This document shows, piece after piece, positions 57,684 to 61,209 of a stretch of DNA of 64,000 nt; within the stretch, counting starts at the first letter, position 1, and every line of letters starts with the position of its first letter. The stretch is taken from the NCBI RefSeq assembly GCF_010550675.1, contig NZ_JAAGOA010000002.1, forward strand, positions 62,001 to 126,000, given 5' to 3'. Source of the DNA: Phytoactinopolyspora halotolerans. GTDB taxonomy: Bacteria; Actinomycetota; Actinomycetes; Jiangellales; Jiangellaceae. The translations under genes and the position numbers were made by a program. The notes below the pieces were generated by a model that was not told where the DNA came from, made no database searches, and saw nothing but the letters and a program-made list of their open reading frames with translations.

Positions 57684-57944
57684 ATGACCGAGAACCCACG
57701 GCGGCGAGATCTCGAACAGCTTCAACAGCGCGTATCCAACCGGATCGACGATCTGAAAGAGGCGCTCGACGGGCCGCGCACGATCATGGAGGACGGCGAC
57801 GCGTGGACCGGGTCACGCGCGGACATCTTCGGTGAGGACCTGGGTTACCGGCGCACGGATCTGCAAGGTGCCGCGACCACACTCAGTGATGACATCGACA
57901 GCGCCGTGCAGGCCGAGCCTGAGACTCTTCCTGAGGACGAGTGA
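57684..57944 (+). CDS. WXG100-like small protein
   Basis: An 86-residue protein with two helices around W41-T-G43, the WXG motif, and Y55xxxD59 shortly after, which resembles the ESX export motif but is closer to the WXG turn than usual. It begins LEQLQQRVSNRIDDLKEAL and ends in an acidic tail. It is 49 bases before the 650-residue gene. AGGTGAGG precedes the ATG. Confidence 0.62.
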   Translation: MTENPRRRDLEQLQQRVSNRIDDLKEALDGPRTIMEDGDAWTGSRADIFGEDLGYRRTDLQGAATTLSDDIDSAVQAEPETLPEDE

Positions 57945-57993
57945 GGGGATCGTGCGGCATGAGTTGCACATCGAAGACGGCTGGAGTTAGCGC

Positions 57994-59946
57994 GTGACAT
58001 ATTCCTCGGTCTCGGTCGAAGGTCTCGAGGACCTGGTCTCGAAGATGCAGACCGCCATGATGACCATCGATTCGTTCACGGGTCAGCTCGGCTACAGCAG
58101 CATCAAGAACGACATGGACGACCTGGGTGTGACGTCCGAGGCGATGCGGACGTTGCGGCTCATCCAGGATTGGATACACGACGACGAGCTGCCATCCCTG
58201 CGTCGCCGGCTGAATCTGGCCCGGGGCCTGCAGCAGAAGTCGCCGAACGCGACCATGCTCACCCTCGACGAAGCGCTCGTCGACGCCATGAGCTCGGAGG
58301 AGGCCGAACAGCGCGGACGTGAGCTGGCCGAGGCGTTCAACGAGCTCGGAGGTGTCAACGAAGGGTTCGGCGACCTCATGGAAGACTTCGAAGAACTCGC
58401 CTATGACCCGGATGCCATGGCGGGGTTCTACGCCGAGCTGGGCCCGGAGCTGGCGGCGATGTTCGCGGGCACCCTCGGCTACCCGGGGAACAACGCGGGG
58501 GATGACTCGCAGCGCTACCTCGAGCTGATGAGCATCGGCCTCGGAACGGCCTTGATGGACGAGACCCGGCCGGGCGACTGGTACGACATGAACGAGTTCT
58601 TCCAGGAAACCGACAATCCCGTCGCCGCGTGGGGGCGGCTGGCACTGTTGCAGTACGGCGACTTCTCGGACTCGCAGTTCTTCGTCCAGATGACCGTGGA
58701 ACGCACCGCGCTCGACGCGTTCACCCAGGACGATTGGGCGGACCCGTACAGCAACATCTCGGCGCAGAACCTGTACCCGCACGAGCACCACATGAATGTG
58801 GATCTACCGGCCAACATCGCCGAGATGGCCTTCCTCACGCTCGGCAAGCACCCCGAAGCCTCCCGGCAGGCCTTGAGCGGGTATGAGGACTTCCCGCTCT
58901 CCAGTTTCGTCGATCGCGTCTACGAGGCGGCCGACTATCCGCACGACCGCTACGAGCTGGCCGATGCGTTCGGCCTGGCGATCGAGTCGGGCGTAGGTGC
59001 CGAAGGCGATCCGCCGCGGACCGAGCACACCGAGGAAGAGGCGGCGTTCGCGTTCGAGTTCATCAACGCCTCCGCCGGACACGACGAGGTTCCGTACCAG
59101 ATCAAGGATTCCCTCGGCCGCATCGGCGCGTCGTACGTCCACGAGATGGTCGCGGGTTCGTACGTCGACGACGGTGAGCTGCCCGGCGACCGGAACTCCT
59201 CCATGACCGATGCGCCGAACGACTTCCCGGAGGGCGTCGGGCTGGAGCCGTCGTTCTACCTCAGCCCGGAGATCACCTACCAATTCCTCGGCAGCTTCCA
59301 GGACGAGCTCTACCTCTCCGAGCCGTACGACAACGCGATGGGCCTGCTGCTCAGCGAACAGCTGGATGCCGCGATCCAGGCGGATCAGGCCGGTGAGGGT
59401 GACGGTAACCGCACCCAGCAGGTGATGGAGCTCTTCGGCGGCGCGTCGCAGCTGCATTACCTCGCCCGCCGCGAGTACGCCGCGGACTTCGACGCACAGG
59501 AGGAGCAACGGCGGGCGGGAGTCGCACAGTTCTACAGCAGTGGCATGGCGATCATCCCGGTTCCGGGTGCCGGGCATTATCTCTACTGGGGCTTCCAGGT
59601 GGTGGCCAACGACAAGCTCAGCGACTGGGTGAGCGGGGGCCCGGGAATGGAAGACCAGGTGGTGTCCGAGAACGCGAACGCGGAAGCCATGCGTTGGTAC
59701 ATGACGGTCCAGGCGATGATCGAGAACGGGGTGGGCGAGGACGCCGTCCCGAACGCGCCTGCCGGGCTGTTCGAGGACGGCGAGCTCAAGCCGATGGACG
59801 AGATCTTCGCCGATGAGCAGCTGCGCCAGGACTTCTACGACTGGGTCAACGAGAACCCAGAGCTCAACGGTCCGTCCGACGACGCGCAGAGCGGCTGGAA
59901 CGACGGCGCACACGGCGTCGACACGTACATCGGAGCGACGAGGTGA
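57994..59946 (+). CDS. Large DUF6571-like protein, 650 aa
   Basis: I recognise only the layout. Residues 1-75 are an ESX-substrate-like helical head (VSVEGLEDLVSKMQTAMMTI, then WIHDDELPSLRRRLNLARGL), as in DUF6571-type actinobacterial proteins. The large middle is helical and acidic (EEAAFAFEFINASAGHDEVP, DNAMGLLLSEQLDAAI, HYLARREYAADFDAQEEQRR). A hydrophobic stretch MAIIPVPGAGHYLYWGFQVV near residue 520 may be a membrane or pore-like segment, and the C terminus is hydrophilic. No catalytic motif or signal peptide is seen. GTG start at 57994. Its stop overlaps the lipoprotein start by 4 bases, so the two are coupled. Confidence 0.65.
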   Translation: MTYSSVSVEGLEDLVSKMQTAMMTIDSFTGQLGYSSIKNDMDDLGVTSEAMRTLRLIQDWIHDDELPSLRRRLNLARGLQQKSPNATMLTLDEALVDAMSSEEAEQRGRELAEAFNELGGVNEGFGDLMEDFEELAYDPDAMAGFYAELGPELAAMFAGTLGYPGNNAGDDSQRYLELMSIGLGTALMDETRPGDWYDMNEFFQETDNPVAAWGRLALLQYGDFSDSQFFVQMTVERTALDAFTQDDWADPYSNISAQNLYPHEHHMNVDLPANIAEMAFLTLGKHPEASRQALSGYEDFPLSSFVDRVYEAADYPHDRYELADAFGLAIESGVGAEGDPPRTEHTEEEAAFAFEFINASAGHDEVPYQIKDSLGRIGASYVHEMVAGSYVDDGELPGDRNSSMTDAPNDFPEGVGLEPSFYLSPEITYQFLGSFQDELYLSEPYDNAMGLLLSEQLDAAIQADQAGEGDGNRTQQVMELFGGASQLHYLARREYAADFDAQEEQRRAGVAQFYSSGMAIIPVPGAGHYLYWGFQVVANDKLSDWVSGGPGMEDQVVSENANAEAMRWYMTVQAMIENGVGEDAVPNAPAGLFEDGELKPMDEIFADEQLRQDFYDWVNENPELNGPSDDAQSGWNDGAHGVDTYIGATR

Positions 59947-60479
59947 GCGCTCGTCGTCGCCTGGTGCGATCGAACCAGGCGCAGATCGGAGCGGCGGTTC
60001 TCGCCGCGGTCGCGCTGACGTCGGCATGTACCGGGGACGACTCCACCGCGGACGTGGAGACCGTGCAGGGCGACGTGGTCGCGGCCGTGGCGCCCCTGCT
60101 CGACGAGTACGAGAGCCTCGGTGAGACTACGCGCGACGTGCGCCGGGACGGTGTGACGGAGCTCGGGTGCGCAGACGGCGGCCGCCGAGCTCAGCATCAG
60201 GTCGTCTTCACTTATCCAGGCGGCAGCGATGTCACGGTGGAGAACACGCGGCGGGTCTATGTCGACTTCATCGCCGCCCACCCGGACTTGGACGTCCGCG
60301 AAGGGATGAATCTGGCGGGAGAGGCGCTGACCGATCACGTGCAGGACGGGACGTCGTTCTTCGAGATGCGGGAGATCATCCGCGACGGCTACACCATGAG
60401 TCTCATCGTGGACATGGACCCGGCCGCGGACGGTGGCACCGTGGTTTCGGTCGACGCCCACACGACGTGCGTGAAGTGA
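59943..60479 (+). CDS. Lipoprotein, unknown function
   Basis: A 178-residue lipoprotein (lipobox LTSAC, Cys29) with a mature alpha/beta domain containing two Cys (LGCADG and HTTCVK, probably a disulfide). No family known to me. The start overlaps the stop of the 650-residue gene by 4 bases, which ties it to the cassette as a surface partner. Confidence 0.75.
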   Translation: MSARRRLVRSNQAQIGAAVLAAVALTSACTGDDSTADVETVQGDVVAAVAPLLDEYESLGETTRDVRRDGVTELGCADGGRRAQHQVVFTYPGGSDVTVENTRRVYVDFIAAHPDLDVREGMNLAGEALTDHVQDGTSFFEMREIIRDGYTMSLIVDMDPAADGGTVVSVDAHTTCVK

Positions 60480-60846: not shown

Positions 60847-61209
60847 ATGACCACCGAAGCCGGGGACCTGATGCCCACGACGGTGAAGCCGATGCTTGCC
60901 ACCCTCGCGGCCCTGCCCGTCGACGACACCGGGCGGGGCTTCGAGATCAAATGGGATGGCGTGCGAACGCTAGCTCGGATCGATGGCGGCGCAGTCCGGC
61001 TGAACGGCCGCACGCTGCGCGACGTCACCACCAGCTACCCGGAACTCACGCGTCTGGGTGCCGCTCTGGCCGGTCACCGGGTGTTCCTCGACGGCGAGGT
61101 CATCGCTCTCGTTCGCCGGCGCCCAGCCCGACAAACCCTGGACGCCCGCCCATCATCTGTCGGAGGTGGTCGCGATACTGGGCCGCAGACGCCAGGGAGG
61201 ATGCGGTGA
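60847..61209 (+). pseudogene. ATP-dependent DNA ligase remnant (N-terminal part)
   Basis: The first 85 codons match the start of LigD/LigC-type ligases: KPMLATLAALPVDDTG, FEIKWDGVRTLARIDGG with the nucleotidyl Lys in KWDG, VTTSYPELTRLGAALAGHRV and FLDGEVIAL. After that the frame reads into unrelated Arg/Pro-rich sequence and stops at 61209. The remaining two thirds of the adenylation domain and the OB-fold are missing, so it is a broken gene. Confidence 0.75.

What the first reader, a model, noticed from the sequence alone, without database searches (positions are those of the whole stretch)
57684..60479. Three-gene cassette: WXG100-like protein, 650-aa DUF6571-like protein and coupled lipoprotein
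Sequence shows a small protein with WTG at 41-43 and YxxxD at 55-59, then a large acidic helical protein with an ESX-substrate-like head and one hydrophobic stretch, then a lipoprotein whose start overlaps the preceding stop. No toxin, nuclease or immunity motif is visible and no ESX core genes lie in the window. The stop/start overlap and the steady order suggest a functional unit, perhaps a secreted surface complex or contact-dependent effector. I know of no assigned function for it.
Basis: partly seen in the sequence, partly recalled or inferred. Interest (0 to 1): 0.72.

Follow-up and report, generated by a model that had tools for sequence, protein, structure and literature searches.

The report
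Probable secreted effector and matched lipoprotein
Three neighbouring genes of a soil actinobacterium most likely make a small escort protein, a large protein exported by a type VII secretion machine, and a surface lipoprotein matched to that protein's tail; in one observed case related strains had swapped tail and lipoprotein together, as toxin-and-antidote pairs do, but no toxicity has been shown.

Summary
The three genes are real, at the stated coordinates, and belong together. The 650-aa protein joins the DUF6571 superfamily by profile comparison; the held library has no paper naming DUF6571. Relatives occur in 48 of 393 genomes of the class, and all 48 encode an EssC/EccC-type T7SS ATPase. 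Of 45 full-length relatives inspected, 43 have a small W-x-G/S gene nearby and 36 a lipoprotein of the same family. Paralogues sit beside essC in this genome and others; in Kribbella antibiotica a window-type cassette does. Other paralogues share the N-terminal module but end in an ADP-ribosyltransferase or endonuclease. The small partner's divergence tracks the protein's head, the lipoprotein's tracks its tip, and in one pair of genomes the C-terminal half and the lipoprotein gene were replaced together. Best reading: a T7SS effector, its WXG100-like export partner, and a lipoprotein that neutralises (or at least binds) its tip. Against: eight Jiangella-group orthologues keep the effector without the lipoprotein; the tip has no known toxin domain; the lipoprotein is on the opposite strand in 26 of 36 loci; nothing was tested at the bench. 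Twenty Jiangellaceae genomes examined lack EccB and EssB, and EccD and mycosin above cut-off, so the exporter may itself be unusual.

The parts
57684..57944 (+). small WXG100-like export partner (86 aa, W41-T42-G43)
   Evidence: W and G kept in 21 of 21; divergence tracks the head of the large protein
57994..59946 (+). 650-aa DUF6571-superfamily protein, putative T7SS effector
57994..58323 (+). head of the large protein, residues 1-110: helical, part of the N-terminal module shared with toxin-tipped paralogues; putative partner-binding region
59515..59629 (+). weakly hydrophobic, low-confidence linker, residues ~508-545
   Evidence: (pLDDT under 50 at 516-528 and 530-535)
59614..59946 (+). C-terminal tip, residues 541-650: helical, no known domain; its divergence matches that of the lipoprotein; putative effector domain
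59943..60479 (+). lipoprotein (178 aa; lipobox Cys29, invariant Cys76 and Cys176), putative immunity protein

Best explanation
The cassette encodes a type VII-secreted effector with its partners. Step 1 (inferred): the 86-aa WXG100-like protein pairs with the N-terminal helical head of the 650-aa protein and forms the export signal. Step 2 (inferred from genome context): the complex is exported by the genome's EssC-type T7SS, encoded on another contig. Step 3 (inferred): outside the cell the helical body presents the C-terminal tip, which acts on the envelope of neighbouring cells. Step 4 (inferred): the cognate lipoprotein, held on the outer face of the producer's membrane, binds the tip and protects the producer and its kin. 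What the calls show is the homology, the co-occurrence, the modular architecture, the matched divergence of partner with head and of lipoprotein with tip, and one joint replacement of C-terminal half and lipoprotein gene. Secretion, toxicity and binding are not shown. My estimates: T7SS substrate with cognate partner about 0.85; effector plus lipoprotein immunity about 0.6.
For: Small gene near 43 of 45 full-length relatives. P0003-family lipoprotein near 36 of 45. Of 20 Jiangellaceae genomes searched whole, 8 have the lipoprotein, and all 8 have a full-length relative of the effector; numbers match 1:1 except one genome with a tandem extra copy (G011) and one with an extra short hit containing a stop (G002). 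L086 also has a second copy split over two frames. Extra copies are what orphan immunity genes would give. EssC/EccC-type ATPase in 48 of 48 genomes with a relative. Full-length homology (profile probability 99.5, residues 3-632) to proteins encoded next to essC. Kribbella antibiotica has a WXG100-like gene, essC and a window-type cassette side by side. Thirteen paralogues keep ~470 residues and then split into an ADP-ribosyltransferase (4.3e-18), an endonuclease (3.7e-11) or other tips, with different downstream genes. Over 29 gene trios, small partner vs head given the rest: partial r 0.55; lipoprotein vs tip given the body: 0.55; cross terms -0.16 and 0.02; 0 of 1000 permutations each; the pattern holds in the 8 loci whose small gene lies downstream. 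L131 vs L128: small 97%, head 95%, tip 16%, lipoprotein 17% identical; DNA 89% and 92% identical on the two sides, with no blastn match across the C-terminal half plus the lipoprotein gene.
Against: Eight orthologues of the Jiangella group keep the large protein (47-54% identical, tip included), but no lipoprotein of this family is found anywhere in those genomes; G014, given the same genus code, does have it. In those eight the cassette stands at one conserved place, like a core gene. The lipoprotein gene is on the opposite strand in 26 of 36 loci, so it is usually not co-transcribed with the effector. The tip has no recognised toxin domain. The predicted lipoprotein fold resembles LppA, DcrB and Eag-type chaperones, which would also suit a chaperone or receptor. 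The columns that separate the lipoprotein-less proteins lie outside the tip. The permutation tests ignore relatedness. Only 1 of 45 full-length loci has essC in the stretch fetched.
Confidence: 0.6

Rival explanations
1. The 650-aa protein is a secreted structural or adhesive surface component and the lipoprotein is its membrane anchor or receptor. Joint replacement then reflects co-evolution of a binding interface, not toxin and immunity.
For: Full-length conservation and a fixed chromosomal place in 8 Jiangella-group genomes; a helical body without a toxin domain; an essC-adjacent homologue followed by a lipoprotein in five loci (L054, L056, L057, L062, L147).
Against: Toxin-tipped paralogues share the N-terminal module; en-bloc replacement of the C-terminal half with the lipoprotein gene, and extra lipoprotein copies; 8 orthologues without the 'anchor'.
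Confidence: 0.25
2. The lipoprotein is an extracytoplasmic chaperone or export factor for the effector, not an immunity protein.
For: Its predicted fold is closest to LppA, DcrB and the Eag chaperones EagT6 and SciW; it tracks the tip.
Against: Absent from 8 genomes that keep the effector; toxin-tipped paralogues have downstream genes without a lipobox, which fits cytosolic immunity better than a general chaperone; the fold scores are middling by the tool's own note.
Confidence: 0.1
3. The matched divergence is only an effect of gene linkage and recombination, and the three genes act separately.
For: The lipoprotein gene usually abuts the 3' end that encodes the tip.
Against: In 8 loci the small gene lies downstream, beyond the lipoprotein gene, and still tracks the head (partial r 0.73); the association holds on either strand and over several families.
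Confidence: 0.05

Closest known systems
LXG polymorphic toxins of T7SSb with Lap1/Lap2 partners (TelC, TelD; PMC9600955, passages seen)
   Same: Helical N-terminal targeting domain that binds small WXG100-like partner proteins, variable C-terminal domain, immunity gene next door
   Different: No LXG family hit; actinobacterial host; DUF6571 superfamily; usually one small gene found; tip without a known toxin domain
TslA lipase toxin with immunity lipoprotein TilA and partners TlaA1/TlaA2 (PMC10730906, passages seen)
   Same: T7SS effector, small helical partners, a lipoprotein as cognate partner, multiple lipoprotein copies
   Different: TslA is reversed (toxin N-terminal, targeting C-terminal); TilA is DUF576, P0003 matches no Pfam family; no lipase domain here
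Pfam PF20211, DUF6571
   Same: Relatives of the window protein reach this family (best 9.6e-13), and these have full-length profile homology to the window class
   Different: The window protein itself does not reach it; no paper in the held library names it
T7SS subtypes T7SSa, T7SSb, T7SSd (PMC11217815: abstract and three sections read)
   Same: EssC/EccC-type ATPase plus WXG100 protein in the same genome
   Different: 20 Jiangellaceae genomes lack EccB and EssB, and EccD and mycosin above cut-off; T7SSd parts (TsdD, TsdH, TsdI) were not tested

Membership tests
WXG100 (PF06013) | about 100 residues with a central WxG | tested here: met
   86 aa, W41-G43; kept in 21 of 21 aligned partners
WXG100 (PF06013) | match to the Pfam model over its curated cut-off | tested here: not met
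   P0001: 0 families at E up to 10; 1 of 21 partners matches at E up to 1, weakly (0.011)
WXG100 (PF06013) | profile similarity to genuine WXG100 proteins | tested here: inconclusive
   hhalign probability 59.9 over 40 columns spanning WxG
WXG100 (PF06013) | helical hairpin fold | not tested
   the two structure jobs went to P0002 and P0003
WXG100 / T7SSa substrate | conserved YxxxD/E export motif | tested here: not met
   present in P0001 but in only 5 of 21 partners
DUF6571 (PF20211) | window protein over the Pfam cut-off | tested here: not met
   no family at E up to 10; 3 of 21 members of A1 match at E up to 1, best 2.4e-8
DUF6571 superfamily | profile homology to members that do match | tested here: met
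   A1 vs A7 99.5, full length; an A7 member matches PF20211 at 9.6e-13
Polymorphic toxin system | constant delivery module with exchangeable C-terminal domains | tested here: met
   A6 paralogues; one replacement in the window's own class, L128/L131
Polymorphic toxin system | known toxin domain in the window protein's own tip | tested here: not met
   no Pfam or NCBIfam match for residues 490-650 at E up to 1
Polymorphic toxin system | toxicity of the tip and neutralisation by the lipoprotein | not testable with these tools
   needs an experiment
LXG toxin (T7SSb) | LXG domain match | tested here: not met
   no Pfam family at E up to 10
T7SSa machinery in the host family | EccB, EccD and mycosin | tested here: not met
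   EccB 0 of 20; EccD over cut-off 0 of 20 (two weak matches below it); mycosin over cut-off 0 of 20 (matches below it in all 20). G298 and G370 are positive over the cut-off for each; G119, tried for EccB and EccD, is negative
T7SSb machinery in the host family | EssB/YukC | tested here: not met
   0 of 20 genomes; the tool's control B. subtilis is positive
T7SS core | EssC/EccC-type ATPase plus WXG100 protein | tested here: met
   own genome: 1557-aa protein, TIGR03928 620 bits (below its cut-off of 778), with a WXG100 protein over the Pfam cut-off beside it
T7SSd | TsdD kinase, TsdH and TsdI | not tested
   described in PMC11217815; no sequences compared

The most novel reading that the evidence does not exclude
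Jiangellaceae and relatives run an undescribed T7SS subtype (EssC-type ATPase and WXG100 protein without EccB, EccD, mycosin or EssB) whose dedicated effectors are DUF6571-superfamily proteins. One class carries an uncharacterised helical tip that acts on the envelope and is neutralised by a matched surface lipoprotein of LppA/DcrB-like fold, with tip and lipoprotein exchanged as a unit between strains.
Probability: 0.4. Interest if true: 0.78.

Novelty: new variant of a known kind. Interest (0 to 1): 0.63.

Why it matters
It gives a testable role to a Pfam family without one (DUF6571): an effector module of type VII secretion in non-mycobacterial Actinomycetota. It suggests lipoprotein immunity outside Bacillota, and points to an EssC-type system in a family where the usual ESX partners were not found. 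The tip and lipoprotein alleles come as natural matched and mismatched pairs, so specificity can be tested directly.

Tried and rejected
Known-domain searches with the three window proteins gave nothing useful (fragilysin at 0.12 for the lipoprotein was dismissed as chance). A sequence search of the PDB with the small-partner profile gave unrelated helical proteins, best E 0.012; with the large-protein profile nothing below 0.5. Foldseek on the large protein gave no match at E up to 0.001; VIA-align gave Z up to 9.7 to HEAT/armadillo solenoids, which the tool's note says is common for helical repeats, so no function is inferred. The lipoprotein's Z 9.6 to LppA is over 129 residues at 5.5 A rmsd from a model with pLDDT 72.4: a lead only.

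A membrane-pore reading of the 'hydrophobic stretch' was considered; no stretch of the window protein reaches transmembrane hydropathy, so it is not claimed. Homology of the essC-adjacent lipoproteins to P0003 was not found (hhalign probability 5.3). Linkage as the only cause of the matched divergence was tested with the loci whose small gene lies downstream and is not favoured. Seven columns conserved in lipoprotein-bearing proteins but changed in the 8 Jiangella-group proteins (69, 103, 165, 289, 291, 293, 352) lie in head and body, not in the tip; this does not fit simply with a tip-binding lipoprotein and is unexplained.

Rows left out: of 36 lipoprotein-family genes the correlation used 29 trios. 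Dropped were one stray distant hit (L046, 2070 bp away), a second copy (L049), three gene calls under 110 aa (L086, L135, L143), one with a short large-gene call (L092) and one without a small gene near (L133). L051, L125 and L130 were missed by my gene caller and found by tblastn; they are in the 36-of-45 count, not in the correlation. Genes were called by my own script, so some starts are uncertain. The 'small gene' test accepts W-x-G and W-x-S. The full-length class is defined by profile E below 1e-50. Of the 50 other family genes, 37 have a small gene within 650 bp and 1 a P0003-family lipoprotein. The EssC comparison with genomes lacking a relative used 18 of 345 such genomes (12 of 18 positive). 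The class search scored about 3 candidates per genome, so its counts are lower bounds. Two further Jiangellaceae genomes (G007, G008; completeness 81 and 75) had no relative and were left out.
Full report
Observation. The three ORFs are at the stated places. The 86-aa protein has W41-T42-G43 and Y55RRTD59; W and G are kept in 21 of 21 aligned partners, the YxxxD/E in 5 of 21. The 650-aa protein is strongly acidic and, in an AlphaFold2 model from 17 sequences (mean pLDDT 82.7, pTM 0.79), almost wholly helical with a poorly predicted linker around 516-535. The third gene encodes a lipoprotein with lipobox Cys29 and two further cysteines that are invariant in 14 sequences. Its GTG start overlaps the preceding stop; a start 21 bases further on is also possible.

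Setting. The window is part of contig C12 of a 7.3-Mb genome. No essC/eccC-like gene lies in the window. The same genome has a WXG100 protein and a 1557-aa ATPase side by side on contig C9; the ATPase scores 620 bits with EssC (cut-off 778), 420 with EccCa (cut-off 509) and 346.5 with EccCb (cut-off 346.55). Next to it are a 108-aa W-x-G gene, a 419-aa putative lipoprotein and a 636-aa relative of the window protein. The window cassette thus has a distant counterpart at the T7SS locus of its own genome.

Distribution. Relatives of the 650-aa protein are in 20 of 60 related genomes by single-sequence search and in 48 of 393 genomes of the class by profile. All 48 encode an EssC/EccC-type ATPase (E up to 1e-40); of 18 genomes without a relative that I also searched (of 345), 12 do, so the ATPase is common and the co-occurrence alone is weak evidence. 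Of 95 family genes inspected, 45 belong to the window's full-length class; 43 of these 45 have a small W-x-G/S gene within 650 bp. A P0003-family lipoprotein is near 33 of 45 by gene calls and 3 more by tblastn; it is on the same strand in 10 of these 36 loci and on the opposite strand in 26. The nine without are eight Jiangella-group orthologues and L123, whose upstream side is cut by the contig start.

Link to T7SS. Thirteen fetched loci contain the EssC-like gene. In five of them (L054, L056, L057, L062, L147) the next genes are a 94-95-aa small gene, a 685-701-aa DUF6571-type protein and a lipoprotein. Profile comparison joins the window class to those proteins over residues 3-632 (probability 99.5), and a member of that set matches PF20211 at 9.6e-13. 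In Kribbella antibiotica (L086) a window-type cassette lies directly beside essC and a WXG100-like gene; it is the only one of the 45 full-length loci with essC in the stretch fetched.

Delivery module and tips. A third set of 13 paralogues (A6) is highly conserved to about residue 468 and then splits into different C-terminal domains: an endonuclease (3.7e-11), an ADP-ribosyltransferase (4.3e-18) and others without a family match. Their downstream genes show no lipobox; one is DUF6188 (3.9e-28), the other four tested have no convincing match. The window class shares residues 1-296 with this set (99.1). So the N-terminal part appears as a carrier for toxin-like domains in paralogues; whether the window's own helical tip is toxic is inferred.

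Matched divergence. Over 29 gene trios the small partner's distances follow those of the head given the rest of the protein (partial r 0.55) and the lipoprotein's follow those of the tip given the body (0.55); crossed terms are -0.16 and 0.02; 0 of 1000 label permutations reached either value; random 110-column subsets reached at most 0.51 over 300 draws. In the 8 loci where the small gene lies downstream, the values are 0.73 and 0.86, so neighbourhood alone does not explain the small-head match. The permutations do not correct for relatedness.

A natural replacement. DNA is 89% identical from 4889 to 7027 of L128 and 92% identical from 8576 on; between them, covering residues from about 349 to the end and the whole lipoprotein gene, blastn at E 1e-8 finds nothing. 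Two further genomes (L130, L051) carry the second allele, with a lipoprotein 59% identical to that of L131. Joint replacement of effector end and neighbouring gene is what effector-immunity pairs do. This is one clear case; no such replacement was seen among the window's nearest relatives (window, L032, L033: tip 78-84%, lipoprotein 46-56% identical).

Against. Eight orthologues of the Jiangella group lack any lipoprotein of the family genome-wide while keeping the tip. Either their tip is harmless, or another protein protects, or the lipoprotein is not an immunity protein. The seven columns that separate these eight from lipoprotein-bearing proteins are in head and body, none in the tip.

The exporter. 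In 20 Jiangellaceae genomes EccB has no match, EssB has no match, EccD has none over its cut-off (two weak ones below) and mycosin has none over its cut-off (all 20 have matches below it), while the EssC-like ATPase is in 20 of 20. G298 and G370 were positive for EccB, EccD and mycosin; G119 was negative for EccB and EccD; B. subtilis among the tool's controls was positive for EssB. Garrett and colleagues (PMC11217815; abstract and three sections read) describe T7SSa and T7SSd in Actinomycetota; I did not test T7SSd parts, so 'new subtype' is only a possibility.

Comparison with the known. The arrangement 'partner gene, effector, immunity gene' is that of LXG toxins, and a lipoprotein as immunity protein has a precedent in TilA for TslA (PMC10730906, passages; PMC9600955, passages). 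The window proteins match none of those families. Searches of the paper library: 'DUF6571' 0 papers. Combinations of T7SS, polymorphic toxin and Actinobacteria terms listed none on this family as far as title and abstract start show; one search listed 12 of 20 papers, and apart from the papers cited above only listings were seen.

Noticed in passing
G000:C9 about 36-56 kb (L071, L175, L176): The T7SS core sits beside what look like tad-pilus genes (recalled, not searched) and a 1001-aa protein with about four hydrophobic segments just upstream of the WXG100 gene; it might be a further component.
   Followed up: partly
20 Jiangellaceae genomes: EssC-type ATPase present without EccB or EssB, and without EccD or mycosin over cut-off: possibly an undescribed T7SS subtype.
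   Followed up: partly
L053:7743-8138: Gene downstream of a DUF6571 paralogue is DUF6188 (3.9e-28), an immunity candidate.
   Followed up: no
L145, L149, L152, L154, L155, L158, L176: Another DUF6571 class is accompanied by 385-419-aa putative lipoproteins, with a small W-x-G gene beyond them.
   Followed up: no
L086:8486-8856 (- strand): A second lipoprotein-like copy, split over two frames, lies behind the first in Kribbella antibiotica.
   Followed up: no
window 60847-61209: 120-aa ORF that resembles the start of an ATP-dependent DNA ligase (recalled, not searched) and looks truncated; ligase-like genes also flank the cassettes in L148, L151 and L159.
   Followed up: no
L034-L041: In 8 Jiangella-group genomes the cassette lies between a dihydrolipoamide-dehydrogenase-like and a NucS-like gene (names recalled).
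   Followed up: no
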